From positions 62,001-126,000 of the forward strand of contig CATOTH010000008.1 in assembly GCA_951813065.1 (NCBI GenBank): a stretch of DNA of 64,000 bases, in the 5' to 3' direction. Positions within the stretch are counted from its first letter, which is position 1, and each line of letters opens with the position of its first letter. This document shows, in pieces, positions 57,396 through 62,212 of this stretch. A program made the position numbers and the translations under genes. The notes beneath the pieces are model-generated. The model was not told the DNA's origin and ran no database searches. It saw only the letters and a program-made list of their open reading frames with translations. The stretch is from an uncultured Bryobacterales bacterium. GTDB lineage: Bacteria > Acidobacteriota > Terriglobia > Bryobacterales > UBA6623.

Positions 57396-57727
57396 GGTCA
57401 AGTCTGGTACTACGGCTACCGCTGCCTGCCCTAGGGAGGTGTTCTCGGCGCCGAGCATCCATCACACCCTCAAGAAGAAGGCCCACGCGCTTTGAGGACC
57501 TTGCCGACTTCATCGACCGCTACAACCCGTAGAGCCGACACAAGCCGAAGGCGACCTGAGAGGAGGAGGCCCACCATGAACGCCGCTGGCGCAGCTACAG
57601 CTACCAGGGGCTGATCAACCGCGACGAGACGAGCCTCGACTGCTTCTGGCTGCGCGACAAGAGCCTAACCGACATCGACGGCCTCCCCGAACTCGACGTG
57701 CTGGAGCGACTGCAAAAGACCGGCTAG
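57396..57727 (+). pseudogene. Type I restriction-modification methyltransferase HsdM, C-terminal remnant
   Basis: Frames read in order give VWYYGYR near 57402, SIHHTLKKKAHA near 57453, then FEDLADFIDRYNP, a TAG, SRHKPKAT, a TGA, and RRWRSYSYQGLINRDETSLD with CFWLRDKSLTDIDGLPELDVL to 57727. This is the conserved C-terminal region of HsdM subunits (HHTLKKKPMRFEDL...; RDKTSLDIFWLKDKSL). Two in-frame stops and at least two frameshifts show it is dead. The methylase domain and hsdS/hsdR are absent. Confidence 0.8.
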
Positions 57728-57742
57728 GCCGATAGCTACCGA

Positions 57743-58717
57743 TCAGCCTTGAGGACGCCTCCGACGACCGTTGCCTTGCCGCGATGCCGCCGAATTCACC
57801 GGTGCCTTTCTTTGCGACGGCGCTTTGTCAACGAGCCGCTCGAACTCGATGGTCCGTAGCTTCAGATTTCCGACGAGCACGCCGCGGCGATAGTGCTGAA
57901 ACTTGCGCCAGACGGCAAACCCCTTGAGAATGGCATCCTGCCACTGGAACTCCGAACGCTCTGCGACTTCGACGTGCCTCGTGAGCTGCTTGATGGTCCG
58001 AAGAATTCCATAGTCCACTTCCTCAACACCTTCGAGGAAGCTATGGTCCTTCGCGTAGTCGAACACCAACGCCGAAATCCCCTCTTCGATAGCAGTCGCC
58101 CGGCCCCCATCCTCAACCTCGTCAACCTGAGGCTCGCTCTTGCGTTTGCAGCCCATGAGCTTTCTCGCAACAGGCGACCAGCCCAGTACGGCGGCGTATG
58201 CGAGGTGGAAGATGTCATGGTACCGATAGCCATCCTCTTCATAGGCGTTATCGGTGAGGCTGTTGCCGAGGGGCGTGTCGTTCATTGTCATTTGTACCTT
58301 GACGCCGCCGTCGCTCTGCACTTCCGCGATCTCTATCCGAAACTCTCTCGGAAGTTGCTCACGCGCCGCAAACTCTTCGTCGAACAAATGGAGATAGCAG
58401 CTAAGCCCGCCTTCGCCCGGCAGCCAACGACTCTCCAGCTTCTTTAGGTTCTCCACTGCGACTGTTTCGAGGTCCAGACCCTCCTTCGACGCGATATTCG
58501 CAACGTACCAGAGGATATCCCCAAGGTCCTCGGCAATCCTGTCCTTGAAGATCTGATACGCAGCACCCTCGCGGAGCCATTTCTTGTACTCAGTCAACAG
58601 CGTGCCGGTCTCTCCGGCCAACCCAAGCAGCGGCACCATCAGCGCCTTGTCGTCCCGCGTTGACCCCGGGACCCGATCTGCAAGCTGGGCCTTCGTTTGG
58701 TAGTCACGGATGCTCAC
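57743..58717 (-). CDS. MazG-like nucleotide pyrophosphohydrolase with C-terminal extension
   Basis: A 324-residue protein. The first 110 residues are an all-helical MazG-type domain: LLGLAGETGTLLTEYKKWL (first acidic helix; the second Glu of ExxE is Thr39) and RIAEDLGDILWYVANIA (second acidic helix). Residues 150-290 are an additional domain with NAYEEDGYRYHDIFHLAYAAVLGWSP and EEGISALVFDYA that I do not recognise. MazG proteins hydrolyse (d)NTPs or alarmones. GTG 58717 overlaps the upstream stop (GTGA), and it is the last gene of a four-gene operon. Confidence 0.78.
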   Translation of the reverse strand: MSIRDYQTKAQLADRVPGSTRDDKALMVPLLGLAGETGTLLTEYKKWLREGAAYQIFKDRIAEDLGDILWYVANIASKEGLDLETVAVENLKKLESRWLPGEGGLSCYLHLFDEEFAAREQLPREFRIEIAEVQSDGGVKVQMTMNDTPLGNSLTDNAYEEDGYRYHDIFHLAYAAVLGWSPVARKLMGCKRKSEPQVDEVEDGGRATAIEEGISALVFDYAKDHSFLEGVEEVDYGILRTIKQLTRHVEVAERSEFQWQDAILKGFAVWRKFQHYRRGVLVGNLKLRTIEFERLVDKAPSQRKAPVNSAASRQGNGRRRRPQG

Positions 58718-59818
58718 AGAGAGTCCTCCTCTTGCTCTTGATTGATCTTTTCGTTCAACCCCCACTTCGGCGGATACCAGTACGTCAGACACGCACTAGA
58801 CGACCTGAATTTCTGCTTGATCCTCGTTCTTCCAGAACCCCTTTCAACCTCGGGATGGTACACGCGCCCGTACTTGTCGACCTCACAGAACAGGTTCTGG
58901 CAGTCGATCAGCTGAAGCGGTCGGCCCCAGAGAGACTTGAGGTCGATACCAAGCCGCTCAAACTCGGCATGTTGCCGCTCGGCGACTTGTTGACGCCGCG
59001 CTCCATGAGTTTGAGAAAGACCTCGGTCCAGGCCAGGGGTAGGTTTGGGCTTTGTGCTGTATACGGCCGACTCATCGTCAACCTCTTCGAGATCTCGGTA
59101 GCGGGCGAGCCCGCAATACTGCTTTCGACTTACGCGGACAAGTTGCGCCCAGCCCGCGTCGGGGACCGCGCATCTTCCTTTTCCCGGCCCTATTGCCTTC
59201 ACCGCGTAGATGGCCTCGTCGCGAGAGATTTCTTCCACGACGGAGCCCTCCACGGAGACGCCCGGAGGCAGGCAGATCACATCTCCTACCTGGGCATCGA
59301 TCGCCCTTCCGGTCCATGCTTCGTCAACGTACACGAGATGCTCTGTACACTCAAATCCAAGCAAGGATTGGCGGATGCGAGGGAGCCTGACCTTAGTCAG
59401 GGCGTTCACCTGATCCTCTTGGAGCAGCACCATACCGAGGCCCATGTTGCGCACCAACGTCGGGTAGCCGACACCCAACCAGGACGACACGATGTAAGCC
59501 TGATCCGGCGTCAGGCTCTTCGGTTTGAACCCGCGCGCCGCCAGTCCCGTGATCACCGCCGTCTTTGGCATCAGCAATGAGGACTAGAAACAGTCCGCCT
59601 CGAACCGGCGGACGCAGCGCCGAGACAACGATCACTGGCTTTCCGGGTGAGTAGATTCCTTCCGCCGACGGGATATCGGCGAAGCGAACCTCGACGCCAA
59701 TCTTTTCTGCGAGATCGTAGGCGCAGCAAGGCTGATCGGCTGGGATTTGATGTTTCTGGCGAAGCCTCAGCGCCGTCCTCATGGCGCGAAGTGCGAGACG
59801 CTTGCGTTCCGGGCTCAT
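58714..59818 (-). pseudogene. ImmA/IrrE-like metallopeptidase, frameshifted and missing HEXXH
   Basis: Starts at ATG 59818 (MSPERKRLALRAMRTALRLR) with the IrrE/ImmA N-terminal region up to VIVVSALRPPVR. The expected zinc-binding HEXXH segment is absent. Homology resumes in another frame as EADCF, a TAG, then SSLLMPKTAVITG, the helix that normally follows the active site, and continues intact (YIVSSWLGVGYPTLVRNMGLG, then a beta-rich C-terminal domain) to 58714. A deletion of roughly the active-site segment plus a frameshift explains this. An internal start near 59577 could still yield the C-terminal 287 residues. Confidence 0.78.
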
Positions 59819-60156
59819 TCACGACCCCCCGGTTTGCGGAGCATTTGGAGAAGCGCAAGAAGCCGGTCCAGATCGTCCTGCTTCATCTTCGCGAGTTCAC
59901 GCGCAGCCAGAAGAATGCGGTCTTCAGCGGGGTCTGATTCCCCTTCTACGTTGGTCAGCCATTCCACGCTCACGCCGTATACGCGAGCGAATTCGACAAG
60001 CTCTTCTCCGCTCACACGTCGTCTCCCAGCCTCAATTTCCGAAACCGTCGGACGGTGGAGCGCCAAGAGCTTCGCGACCTGGCCCTGGCTCAACCCAGCC
60101 GCCTCCCGCGCAGTGCGGAGGCGGCTTGCGATTTGTTCCCGCGTACCTTCACCCAT
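59815..60156 (-). CDS. XRE-family helix-turn-helix regulator
   Basis: A 113-residue protein with an HTH_3 domain at about 7-65: LRTAREAAGLSQGQVAKLLA and LHRPTVSEIEAGRRRVSGEEL. The C-terminal helix-rich tail (LAKMKQDDLDRLLALLQML) may mediate partner contacts. It starts 2 bases after the carrier-protein-like gene and overlaps the ImmA start by 4 bases (ATGA). XRE-ImmA pairs are regulator-protease units, as in ICEBs1 ImmR-ImmA. It probably binds the palindromes at 60455-60481. Confidence 0.88.
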   Translation of the reverse strand: MGEGTREQIASRLRTAREAAGLSQGQVAKLLALHRPTVSEIEAGRRRVSGEELVEFARVYGVSVEWLTNVEGESDPAEDRILLAARELAKMKQDDLDRLLALLQMLRKPGGRE

Positions 60157-60158
60157 GA

Positions 60159-60440
60159 CTACTTGTCGCCTCCCGAGACCTTGGCAAGGCGCTGCGCGAT
60201 CTGAGCGATGCTGAGCGGCTCGGCGTTTTCCTTGGTCCAGAAGACACTGTCGGCCCCAAAGGACGCACCAAGACGCGCCTCCAACGCGATAGTTGTTTCG
60301 ACAGCGAGCAGGCTATCGAAGAAGCCGAGGTCCCGAATAGGGACCGTTGCGGGCAGGACCTCGCCGCTTTCGTCCTCGGCACCCGCCTGGAACTCCTTCA
60401 GCATGTGGATCAGCGCTTTTTCGATGTCGTCTGGGCTCAT
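60159..60440 (-). CDS. Acyl-carrier-protein-like small protein
   Basis: A 93-residue protein, MSPDDIEKALIHMLKEFQAG with a four-helix pattern and RDLGFFDSLLAVETTIALEARLG. The D-S-L at about Ser43 is the phosphopantetheine site of carrier proteins. ATG 60440 is preferred over 60443 because of its spacing to GGAGGA. It opens the operon carrier-protein-like, XRE, ImmA-like, MazG-like. Its substrate, and whether it is really modified, are unknown. Confidence 0.72.
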   Translation of the reverse strand: MSPDDIEKALIHMLKEFQAGAEDESGEVLPATVPIRDLGFFDSLLAVETTIALEARLGASFGADSVFWTKENAEPLSIAQIAQRLAKVSGGDK

Positions 60441-60454
60441 CATTCCTCCATGAT

Positions 60455-60481
60455 TCTTACCAGACAGTAAGATTATCTTAC
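60455..60481. promoter_or_regulatory. Palindromic operator upstream of the four-gene operon
   Basis: Three half-sites: TCTTAC (60455-60460), GTAAGA (60467-60472) and TCTTAC (60476-60481). The last two form the 15-bp palindrome GTAAGAT-T-ATCTTAC; the first two form a spaced inverted repeat. The site covers the likely -10 region just upstream of the operon's ribosome-binding site and is a good candidate for the XRE regulator. Confidence 0.65.
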
Positions 60482-60549
60482 AGCACCTCCGGTTCGAGTC
60501 AACCCTTCCCGCCCCGGCCCCGACATGACCCTGCTGAGGAATCTTTACT

Positions 60550-60604
60550 TAACGTCCATAAACATGTATCTTATAAAGGATAACGATTACAATTATGGAC
60601 GTTA
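60550..60604. promoter_or_regulatory. 12-bp inverted repeats flanking the hipBA promoter
   Basis: TAACGTCCATAA at 60550-60561 and its perfect complement TTATGGACGTTA at 60593-60604, spaced by 31 bases, with an AT-rich stretch between that would hold the promoter. HipB normally represses hipBA through paired operators. The right arm ends one base before the hipB ATG. Confidence 0.6.
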
Positions 60605-60605
60605 C

Positions 60606-60947
60606 ATGAAAACGAGCTCATTCTCAGACGTGCCGATACCCGTCAGCCGCGCCCTGCGCAAGCTGGGACACGACATCCGTGATGCGCGCCGCCGCCGCCG
60701 CATCCCGGTGGCGATCCTGGCCGAGCGGGCCTCCGTCAGCCGCACCACCTTGAACAAGGTCGAGAAGGGCGCGCCCGGCGTCTCGCTGGGCATCTACGCC
60801 ACGGTGCTTTTTGTGCTGGGCATGATCGACCGGCTCGCCGACATCGCCGACCCGCGACATGATTCCGTCGGCCTTGAGCTCGAGGAGGAAAACCTTCCGG
60901 AACGCATCCGGCTCCCCCGGCCCGGCAAGCCCAAAGGGGACGCGTGA
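60606..60947 (+). CDS. hipB: HipB-like XRE antitoxin
   Basis: A 113-residue protein starting at ATG 60606 with an HTH domain (GHDIRDARRRRRIPVAILAE, then RASVSRTTLNKVEKG) and a C-terminal tail rich in Pro and Lys. In HipBA systems HipB represses the operon and holds HipA inactive. The stop overlaps the HipA start (TGATG). There is no clear Shine-Dalgarno; an ATG at 60564 in the same frame is an alternative. The inverted repeats immediately upstream support autoregulation. Confidence 0.85.
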   Translation: MKTSSFSDVPIPVSRALRKLGHDIRDARRRRRIPVAILAERASVSRTTLNKVEKGAPGVSLGIYATVLFVLGMIDRLADIADPRHDSVGLELEEENLPERIRLPRPGKPKGDA

Positions 60948-62212
60948 TGGAGCGAAACATCCTCGTCTATGTGGACCTGCTCAGCACGCCCCATCTCGTT
61001 GGACGGCTCTGGGCGCGCACGCGCCGCGACAAGGAAGGAGCCACGTTTCAATATGGCGACGCCTGGCTCGCCAACCCTGACCGTTTCTCTCTGGAGCCGG
61101 CGCTCATTCTTGGGCCCGGTCCCTTCCACACGCCATCCGACAAGCCCCTGTTCGGAGCCATTGGCGACTCAGCGCCAGACCGCTGGGGACGCGCCCTCAT
61201 GCGCCGTGCTGAGCGCCGCCGCGCGGAAACGCAGAGCGAGACGCCGCGCACGCTCCGGGAAATCGACTACCTGCTCATGGTGGACGATGAAGCCCGCCAG
61301 GGCGCGCTGCGCTTTGCGGAACAAGAAGGCGGGCCATTCCTTGCGCCGCAGGGGCCGACAAAGATTCCGCCACTCGTCGATCTGCCCCGTCTGCTTTCCG
61401 CCGCCGAGCATGTCGCAGGAGACACCGATACCGACGAGGATTTGCGTCTGCTTCTCGCCCCCGGCTCGTCCCTCGGCGGCGCGCGGCCCAAGGCATCGGT
61501 TCGTGACCGCGACGGGCATCTCGCAATCGCCAAGTTCCCCAGTCCGGGCGATGAAATCAAGACGGTGCTCTGGGAGGCCGTCGCCCTGACGCTCGCCGCG
61601 AAGGCCGGTATTGCCGTCCCGACCTGGCGGCTTGAAACCGTCGGCGACAAGCCGGTCCTCCTGCTCCGCCGCTTCGACCGCGGGGACGACACGCGCGTTC
61701 CCTTTCTCTCAGCGATGAGTGTGCTTGGCGCAAGGGACAACGAAACGCGGAGCTATCTCGAATTCGTCGATGTCCTTCGCCGGTACGGCGCAGAACCAGA
61801 GGCCGATATGCAAGGCCTGTGGCGGCGCATCGTCCTCAGCATCCTGATCTCCAACACCGACGACCATCTGCGCAACCACGGCTTTCTCTATGCTGGTCCG
61901 TCCGGCTGGCGGCTCTCCCCGGCCTACGACCTCAACCCGGTGCCCACCGACATCAAGCCCCGTGTGCTTTCAACGGCCATCGATCTTGGCGATACGACGG
62001 CTTCTCTTGACCGCGCGCTGGAGGTGTCATCGTATTTCGAGCTGGAACCGGACAAAGCCCGGCGCATCGCCAAGGAAGTGGCACAAGCCGTTGCGCTATG
62101 GCGGGACGAGGCAGCCACGCTCGGCCTGACGTCCGCCGAGATTGACCGCATGGCCTCCGCCTTCGAGCACGACGACCTCAAAGCGGCACAGCGCGGCGGC
62201 CGATCCCACTAG
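60947..62212 (+). CDS. hipA: HipA-like serine/threonine kinase toxin
   Basis: A 421-residue protein. The N-terminal couple_hipA part (GPGPFHTPSDKPLFGAIGDS, then APDRWGRALM) precedes the kinase core with GSSLGGARPKASV (phosphorylatable loop), HLAIAKFPS, catalytic NTDDHLRNHGFLY and metal-binding SPAYDLNPVP. In E. coli HipA phosphorylates glutamyl-tRNA synthetase and causes persistence. All key segments look intact. ATG 60947 overlaps the hipB stop; a GTG one codon earlier is also possible. Confidence 0.92.
   Translation: MERNILVYVDLLSTPHLVGRLWARTRRDKEGATFQYGDAWLANPDRFSLEPALILGPGPFHTPSDKPLFGAIGDSAPDRWGRALMRRAERRRAETQSETPRTLREIDYLLMVDDEARQGALRFAEQEGGPFLAPQGPTKIPPLVDLPRLLSAAEHVAGDTDTDEDLRLLLAPGSSLGGARPKASVRDRDGHLAIAKFPSPGDEIKTVLWEAVALTLAAKAGIAVPTWRLETVGDKPVLLLRRFDRGDDTRVPFLSAMSVLGARDNETRSYLEFVDVLRRYGAEPEADMQGLWRRIVLSILISNTDDHLRNHGFLYAGPSGWRLSPAYDLNPVPTDIKPRVLSTAIDLGDTTASLDRALEVSSYFELEPDKARRIAKEVAQAVALWRDEAATLGLTSAEIDRMASAFEHDDLKAAQRGGRSH

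What the first reader, a model, noticed from the sequence alone, without database searches (positions are those of the whole stretch)
58714..60481. Four-gene coupled operon: carrier-protein-like, XRE, ImmA-like, MazG-like
The genes are packed with 2-base gap, ATGA overlap and GTGA overlap, under a palindromic operator, and lie beside an hsdM remnant and HipBA. XRE plus ImmA is a known regulator-protease pair, and MazG proteins act on nucleotides or alarmones, so a damage- or phage-triggered nucleotide-depletion system is conceivable. The carrier-protein-like first gene is unexpected in such a context. The MazG protein also has a 150-residue C-terminal domain I do not recognise. Here the ImmA gene is broken, so intact versions must be sought elsewhere.
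Basis: partly seen in the sequence, partly recalled or inferred. Interest (0 to 1): 0.82.

Follow-up and report, generated by a model that had tools for sequence, protein, structure and literature searches.

The report
Decayed carrier-protein nucleotide-modification operon
The four genes are the remains of a six-gene operon, found intact in many unrelated bacteria, that looks like a switchable antiviral pathway for making altered DNA building blocks and that, unexpectedly, usually starts with a carrier protein like those used to build fatty acids.

Summary
The genes and couplings are real, but this is not a complete four-gene system. It is a decayed copy of a conserved six-gene operon: carrier protein (ACP), XRE, ImmA, thymidylate-synthase-like protein, thymidylate-kinase + '5-hmdU DNA kinase helical domain' protein, MazG/MazG_C. 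Two deletions removed ImmA's zinc site (~118 nt) and most of the two middle genes (~2.1 kb), so ImmA and MazG became neighbours. The 'unknown' MazG domain is Pfam MazG_C. I found intact copies in Acidobacteriota, Cyanobacteria, Proteobacteria, Planctomycetes, Bacteroidota and Actinomycetota, on chromosomes and conjugative plasmids. In 57 of 61 loci holding the first five genes, they lie in the same order on one strand. The window's operator (GTAAGAwwwTCTTAC) recurs upstream of 52 of 54 carrier genes. The carrier's phosphopantetheine serine is invariant in 61 of 61 loci, and 20 loci carry a holo-ACP synthase in or beside the operon, so the carrier is probably a working part. The best reading is an XRE/ImmA-switched, probably antiviral pathway making a C5-modified deoxyuridine nucleotide or DNA base. 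The pathway is inferred from homology, and antiviral activity is published only for a system sharing two of these domain types. What the carrier does is the new, open question.

The parts
60467..60481 (-). Operator palindrome GTAAGATAATCTTAC, about 41 bp upstream of the ACP start
   Evidence: Exact half-sites upstream of 37 of 54 ACP genes and within 2 mismatches in 52 of 54, in many phyla; only match in the window and only exact match in the genome
60159..60443 (-). Carrier protein (ACP-like), 94 aa, GFFDSL motif with the phosphopantetheine-site Ser; open
   Evidence: Pfam PP-binding E 8e-4, 20.1 bits, just under the 20.8 cut-off; family profile matches solved ACPs and E. coli AcpP; Ser invariant in 61/61 loci
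59815..60156 (-). XRE-family repressor, 113 aa; open
   Evidence: HTH_3 E 7e-16; best PADLOC model CapH E 3e-12
59600..59818 (-). ImmA/IrrE peptidase, N-terminal part (residues 1-73)
   Evidence: 70% identical to L016 ImmA 1-73
59604..59607 (-). Junction of deletion 1: about 118 nt missing, including the HExxH zinc site; frame lost, with an in-frame stop just after
   Evidence: DNA and tblastn alignment to L016, L017 and L025; HExxH invariant in 67/67 relatives
59071..59610 (-). ImmA peptidase, C-terminal part (residues 109-288)
   Evidence: 56% identical to L016 ImmA
58995..59075 (-). Stub of the thymidylate-synthase-like gene (residues 1-27)
   Evidence: tblastn E 1e-6 to L016 TS-like protein
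58986..58994 (-). Junction of deletion 2: about 2.1 kb missing (rest of TS-like gene and codons 1 to ~471 of TMK-HMUDK)
   Evidence: Same junction in alignments to L016, L017 and L025
58726..58985 (-). Remnant of the TMK-HMUDK gene (last ~90 of 568 residues)
   Evidence: HMUDK_hel E 5.6e-13; tblastn
57743..58717 (-). MazG NTP pyrophosphohydrolase + MazG_C domain, 324 aa, GTG start; open
   Evidence: MazG E 4e-6 and MazG_C E 3e-77; active-site EExxD residues kept in the family; AlphaFold model pLDDT 86

Best explanation
The locus is an inactivated copy of a widespread operon: ACP - XRE - ImmA - TS-like - TMK-HMUDK - MazG/MazG_C, sometimes with its own holo-ACP synthase, dCTP deaminase, dUTPase or a second, canonical TS. 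Shown: gene content, order, shared operator, conserved catalytic residues, the two deletions here. Inferred: XRE binds GTAAGAwwwTCTTAC and keeps the operon off; on infection or DNA damage (ssDNA, as for CapP/CapH) ImmA cleaves XRE and the operon fires. MazG, dCTP deaminase and dUTPase feed dUMP; the TS-like enzyme puts a one-carbon group on C5 of dUMP; the kinase and HMUDK_hel domains phosphorylate and further modify it, as in phage thymidine hypermodification; the pantetheinylated carrier supplies or holds a group in that chemistry. The product, an abnormal dU nucleotide or base, most likely blocks phage DNA synthesis or triggers a TIR-type effector. In the window the protease and both middle enzymes are lost, so the pathway cannot work.
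For: Five genes in fixed order on one strand in 57 of 61 loci holding all five, although most loci were fetched with the kinase protein only. Reciprocal test in 396 Acidobacteriota genomes: the carrier family occurs in 5 (window plus four), and in each of those four lies about 1.2-1.7 kb upstream of the TS-like gene. Operator in 52/54 versus 5 of 569 flanking ORFs. Carrier Ser 61/61; holo-ACP synthase in 20 loci, mostly convergent with and within 65 nt of MazG (Pfam ACPS; annotated acpS on plasmids). TS-like Cys 66/66, profile match to canonical TS E 8e-4 and to CMP 5-hydroxymethylase E 0.008. HMUDK_hel model matches phage SP10 5-hmdU DNA kinase E 7e-16 and base-excising enzyme folds. MazG like dCTP/dUTP pyrophosphatases. 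dCTP deaminase, dUTPase, ThsB TIR, Nmad2 and viperin-like radical SAM recur beside it. 227 PADLOC models hit in 128 flanking genes versus 29 in 114 control genes. 5-hmdU kinase and thymidylate synthase domains are among those newly validated in E. coli phage-defence systems (PMC13092281).
Against: No member of this exact operon has been tested, as far as I could find. No loading enzyme for the carrier (adenylation or acyltransferase) is in the core operon. No dedicated effector recurs in the MazG-type operons. TS-like similarity to TS is weak (hhalign probability 24%), though the E-value and aligned Cys/Asn support it. Fold similarity of HMUDK_hel to DNA glycosylases and to a free-nucleotide enzyme leaves open whether the substrate is DNA or nucleotide. 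The PADLOC control is not taxon-matched, and the 80 loci are the best-scoring of 391, not a random sample.
Confidence: 0.55

Rival explanations
1. The operon modifies the host's or a plasmid's own DNA (a C5-hypermodified thymine mark), for protection or as an epigenetic mark, not to attack phage.
For: HMUDK_hel belongs with phage enzymes of thymidine hypermodification and has a DNA-glycosylase-like fold. On Erythrobacter and Sphingosinicella plasmids an HMUDK gene sits by dnaE and dnaQ-type genes.
Against: Tight repressor/protease control suggests the product is unwanted in normal growth; no matching nuclease or sequence-specific DNA-modifying enzyme is in the core operon.
Confidence: 0.2
2. 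It is a small biosynthetic cluster for a nucleoside antibiotic or other secondary metabolite.
For: Carrier protein + PPTase + CMP-hydroxymethylase-like TS, and a radical SAM protein in six variants, recall nucleoside antibiotic clusters.
Against: No transporter, adenylation or tailoring genes in the core; same six genes in very different phyla and on conjugative plasmids; XRE-ImmA control and defence-rich surroundings.
Confidence: 0.1
3. MazG-driven nucleotide depletion: the system mainly destroys dNTPs or an alarmone on infection.
For: MazG resembles dCTP/dUTP pyrophosphatases and dCTP deaminase recurs; dNTP depletion by such enzymes is a known defence (own knowledge).
Against: Of 69 loci with XRE, ImmA, TS-like and TMK-HMUDK genes, 27 have no MazG found (16 with canonical TS, 11 with neither), and five or six of those have radical SAM in its place, whereas TS-like, HMUDK and usually the carrier remain; depletion needs no carrier or kinase.
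Confidence: 0.12
4. The window's broken gene order is an assembly error rather than real decay.
For: Reads were not available.
Against: Two separate lesions plus a nonsense codon; no other copy of TS-like or full TMK-HMUDK genes in the genome assembly.
Confidence: 0.05

Closest known systems
Defence systems with thymidylate synthase, dNMP kinase and 5-hmdU kinase domains (DefensePredictor, Science 2026, PMC13092281)
   Same: Thymidylate synthase and 5-hmdU kinase domains among those newly validated in phage defence in E. coli; the same paper predicts MazG and MazG-C domains as defensive
   Different: The main text mentions no carrier protein and no ImmA; exact gene make-up, and whether the domains share one system, is in a figure and supplement I could not read
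Phage thymidine hypermodification pathway (5-hmdU DNA kinase; phages M6, ViI, phiW-14, SP10)
   Same: HMUDK_hel family, TS-superfamily enzyme, kinase on a 5-hydroxymethyl-dU type substrate (PMC6449724)
   Different: Here chromosomal or plasmid-borne, repressor/protease regulated, with carrier protein and holo-ACP synthase; kinase part is thymidylate-kinase-like
CapH/CapP regulators of CBASS (and DdrO/PprI)
   Same: Adjacent XRE repressor and ImmA/IrrE peptidase at the head of an immune operon
   Different: Controls nucleotide-modification genes, with a carrier gene in front and a conserved 15-bp operator of its own
Bacterial acyl carrier protein and AcpS
   Same: Carrier family by profile, invariant phosphopantetheine serine, PPTase adjacent in many loci
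   Different: Separate, divergent family (window copy about 18-52% identical to its relatives) restricted to this operon where tested; no fatty-acid or polyketide genes in the operon

Membership tests
Phosphopantetheine carrier protein | PP-binding domain by sequence | tested here: met
   Above Pfam cut-off for L016 (25.0 bits) and L138 (32.3 bits); window copy 20.1 vs 20.8; family profile hits solved ACPs E 4e-4
Phosphopantetheine carrier protein | Conserved serine for phosphopantetheine | tested here: met
   61/61, window included
Phosphopantetheine carrier protein | Carries 4'-phosphopantetheine in vivo | not testable with these tools
   Needs mass spectrometry; AcpS in or beside the operon in 20 loci is indirect support
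CapH/CapP-type repressor-protease switch | XRE next to ImmA/IrrE peptidase with HExxH | tested here: met
   69 of 73 loci have both; HExxH 67/67; in the window itself HExxH is deleted
CapH/CapP-type repressor-protease switch | ssDNA-triggered cleavage of the repressor | not testable with these tools
   Known for CapP and PprI (PMC10904395)
Thymidylate synthase superfamily (TS-like gene) | Catalytic Cys and TS-family sequence similarity | tested here: met
   Cys 66/66 aligned to TS Cys; profile-profile E 8e-4 but probability 24%; CMP 5-hydroxymethylase E 0.008; weak but consistent; no structure was predicted
5-hmdU DNA kinase family | HMUDK_hel domain with a P-loop kinase | tested here: met
   HMUDK_hel E 3e-113 and Thymidylate_kin E 1e-12; SP10 match; in many loci only the helical part was matched
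5-hmdU DNA kinase family | Phosphorylates 5-hydroxymethyl-dU in DNA | not testable with these tools
   Substrate could be DNA or free nucleotide
DefensePredictor TS/5-hmdU kinase defence system | Same gene set as the validated E. coli system | tested here: inconclusive
   Only main text and legends readable
Thoeris | ThsB TIR + ThsA pair | tested here: inconclusive
   ThsB_TIR-type protein near 9 loci; no ThsA looked for

The most novel reading that the evidence does not exclude
A pantetheinylated carrier protein takes direct part in nucleotide or DNA-base hypermodification: its thiol, or an acyl or aminoacyl group on it, is joined to C5 of a deoxyuridine nucleotide by the TS-like/HMUDK enzymes. 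This would be a chemistry not known to me for nucleic acids, used as an inducible antiviral weapon or signal.
Probability: 0.3. Interest if true: 0.92.

Novelty: new variant of a known kind. Interest (0 to 1): 0.72.

Why it matters
Nucleotide-modification domains are suspected parts of bacterial immunity, mostly without mechanism. This operon is compact, conserved across phyla with a shared operator, present in culturable hosts, and ties such enzymes to carrier-protein chemistry and to a recognisable on-switch, so both the trigger and the product can be tested directly.

Tried and rejected
Reading ImmA and MazG as natural neighbours: rejected, deletion artefact. MazG_C as an unknown domain: rejected, Pfam PF18722; in the fold searches the MazG part filled the lists, so nothing follows about the fold of MazG_C. 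An intact second copy in the same genome: none found. Sequence search of HMUDK_hel against solved structures: nothing credible. TS-like against Pfam and PADLOC: no match; identified only by profile methods. Literature searches for ACP/MazG/ImmA/TS combinations found no description of this operon; Burroughs 2015 and Iyer 2013 (NAR) are not in the library, so prior description there cannot be excluded. Defence enrichment is a rough comparison only: the control genes come from acidobacterial genomes, not taxon-matched, and many PADLOC models overlap.

Full report
What is in the window. On the minus strand lie an ACP-like ORF (60159-60443), an XRE regulator (59815-60156), pieces of an ImmA peptidase, and a MazG protein with a C-terminal Pfam MazG_C domain (57743-58717). 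The 2-base gap, the ATGA overlap and the GTGA overlap are as described, and a 15-bp palindrome (60467-60481) sits before the first gene. The ORF between XRE and MazG also ends in a piece of Pfam HMUDK_hel, '5-hmdU DNA kinase, helical domain'. That was the first sign that something is missing.

Intact relatives. A search for MazG_C in the same order of Acidobacteriota (11 of 257 genomes) gave three loci (L016, L017, L018) with six coupled genes: ACP, XRE, ImmA, a ~262-residue protein, a ~570-residue thymidylate-kinase + HMUDK_hel protein, and MazG/MazG_C. Aligning the window to them shows two internal deletions. About 118 nt are missing from ImmA, taking the HExxH zinc site. About 2.1 kb are missing from codon ~27 of the 262-residue gene to codon ~471 of the kinase gene. 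The window is a decayed copy; its genome assembly has no TS-like gene and no full TMK-HMUDK gene elsewhere. ACP, XRE and MazG are still open, with fewer amino-acid-changing than silent differences to relatives, although synonymous sites are mostly saturated.

How conserved it is. A scan of one genome for each of 84,980 species with the kinase protein returned 391 places, of which the best 80 were kept. After removing duplicates, and with the other loci added, 89 loci carry a kinase/HMUDK match. 73 have the TS-like gene, 69 of these XRE and ImmA, 61 the carrier. Where all five are present (61 loci), 57 have them on one strand in the same order. Hosts span Acidobacteriota, Cyanobacteria, alpha-, beta- and delta-proteobacteria, Planctomycetes, Bacteroidota, Chloroflexi and Actinomycetota. 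Plasmids of Sinorhizobium fredii, Rhizobium rosettiformans and Nostoc carry it, and a Streptomyces plasmid has a rearranged copy whose first gene NCBI itself calls 'acyl carrier protein'. A reciprocal search with the carrier family alone in 396 Acidobacteriota genomes found it in five: the window genome and four others, all four with the TS-like gene about 1.2-1.7 kb downstream. So the carrier is not a chance neighbour.

Regulation. The palindrome GTAAGA-NNN-TCTTAC occurs exactly upstream of 37 of 54 carrier genes and with at most two mismatches in 52 of 54; shuffled upstream regions reach that in 0.5% of cases, and ordinary flanking ORFs in 5 of 569. The window genome has one exact site in 5.59 Mb. 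XRE and ImmA match the CBASS regulators CapH and CapP best in PADLOC. CapP, like PprI, cleaves its repressor when ssDNA is present (PMC10904395), so a damage- or infection-triggered switch is the likely reading. This is inferred, not shown.

The enzymes. The TS-like family has an invariant Cys (66/66) that aligns with the TS nucleophile, and an invariant Asn that aligns with a conserved TS Asn (which from general knowledge reads dUMP); the similarity is weak, but its best solved relative is CMP 5-hydroxymethylase. The HMUDK_hel model (pLDDT 95) matches the 5-hmdU DNA kinase of phage SP10 (E 7e-16) and other phage hypermodification proteins, and beyond these queuosine nucleosidase DUF2419 (Z 10.5, rmsd 5.5, 237 aligned) and HhH-GPD DNA glycosylases (Z 8-9), folds that bind a base within DNA or a nucleotide. 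MazG belongs with dCTP and dUTP pyrophosphatases. dCTP deaminase and dUTPase recur in variants. All of this points to dUMP and its C5 position.

The carrier. The phosphopantetheine serine is invariant in 61 of 61 loci, although the relatives aligned are only about 18-52% identical to the window copy; a divergent second carrier type, included in that count, keeps it too. In 20 loci a holo-ACP synthase lies in or beside the operon, mostly convergent with MazG at 65 nt or less, with conserved catalytic-type residues kept. The window genome has no adjacent one but has two PPTase-family genes elsewhere. A carrier protein in a nucleotide-modification operon is not something I found described in the papers I could search.

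Link to defence. The third slot holds MazG_C, a canonical TS, or a radical SAM protein with some viperin similarity; ThsB-type TIR and Nmad2 genes each recur near nine loci, a TIR-SLOG protein in a few, and a CapV-like patatin next to HMUDK-MazG on a Gloeothece plasmid. 128 flanking genes hit 227 PADLOC models against 29 for 114 random acidobacterial genes; the control is not taxon-matched and many models overlap, so this is only a rough sign. DefensePredictor lists a 5-hydroxymethyluracil kinase and a thymidylate synthase among domains newly validated in phage defence in E. coli, and predicts MazG and MazG-C as defensive (PMC13092281).

Conclusion. The finding is a broken copy of a real, widespread operon. 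Well supported: gene content, order, operator, lesions. Likely: an inducible pathway to a C5-modified deoxyuridine nucleotide or base with an antiviral role. Open: DNA or nucleotide substrate, what the carrier carries, and how the product acts.

Noticed in passing
window 60525-62212 (+): HipB/HipA pair diverging from the operon; HipA C-terminal domain E 2e-47, so HipBA looks intact.
   Followed up: partly
window about 57576-57728 (+): Fragment reading like the 3' end of a type I modification subunit (hsdM), with no full gene around it (read by eye).
   Followed up: no
L044, L049, L050, L091, L095, L098: A radical SAM protein with weak viperin (pVip) similarity stands in the place of MazG or canonical TS right after TMK-HMUDK (in L095 about 1.4 kb away): a third version of the operon.
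   Followed up: partly
L025, L028, L037, L038, L051, L063, L075, L089, L094: ThsB-type TIR gene, in most of them with an Nmad2 gene, near the HMUDK locus; in L014 what look like the same two genes lie by a MazG_C gene without HMUDK.
   Followed up: partly
L111 114-3225 (Gloeothece plasmid pP742404): Patatin-like (CapV-type) phospholipase overlapping HMUDK and followed by MazG, near TIR genes: possible effector-bearing form of the system.
   Followed up: no
L113 1-8993 (Rhizobium ruizarguesonis pRlX4): Caspase and pYEATS genes, holo-ACP synthase, small hypothetical, XRE, ImmA, C1 peptidase, dCTP deaminase and HMUDK in one run.
   Followed up: no
L136 6309-11679 and L137 6318-12230: HMUDK gene next to DNA polymerase III alpha and epsilon/exonuclease-type genes on large plasmids, suggesting replicons with modified DNA.
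   Followed up: no
L024 8344-9615 (-): One protein with two MazG_C domains in tandem and no MazG match to the window-family model.
   Followed up: no
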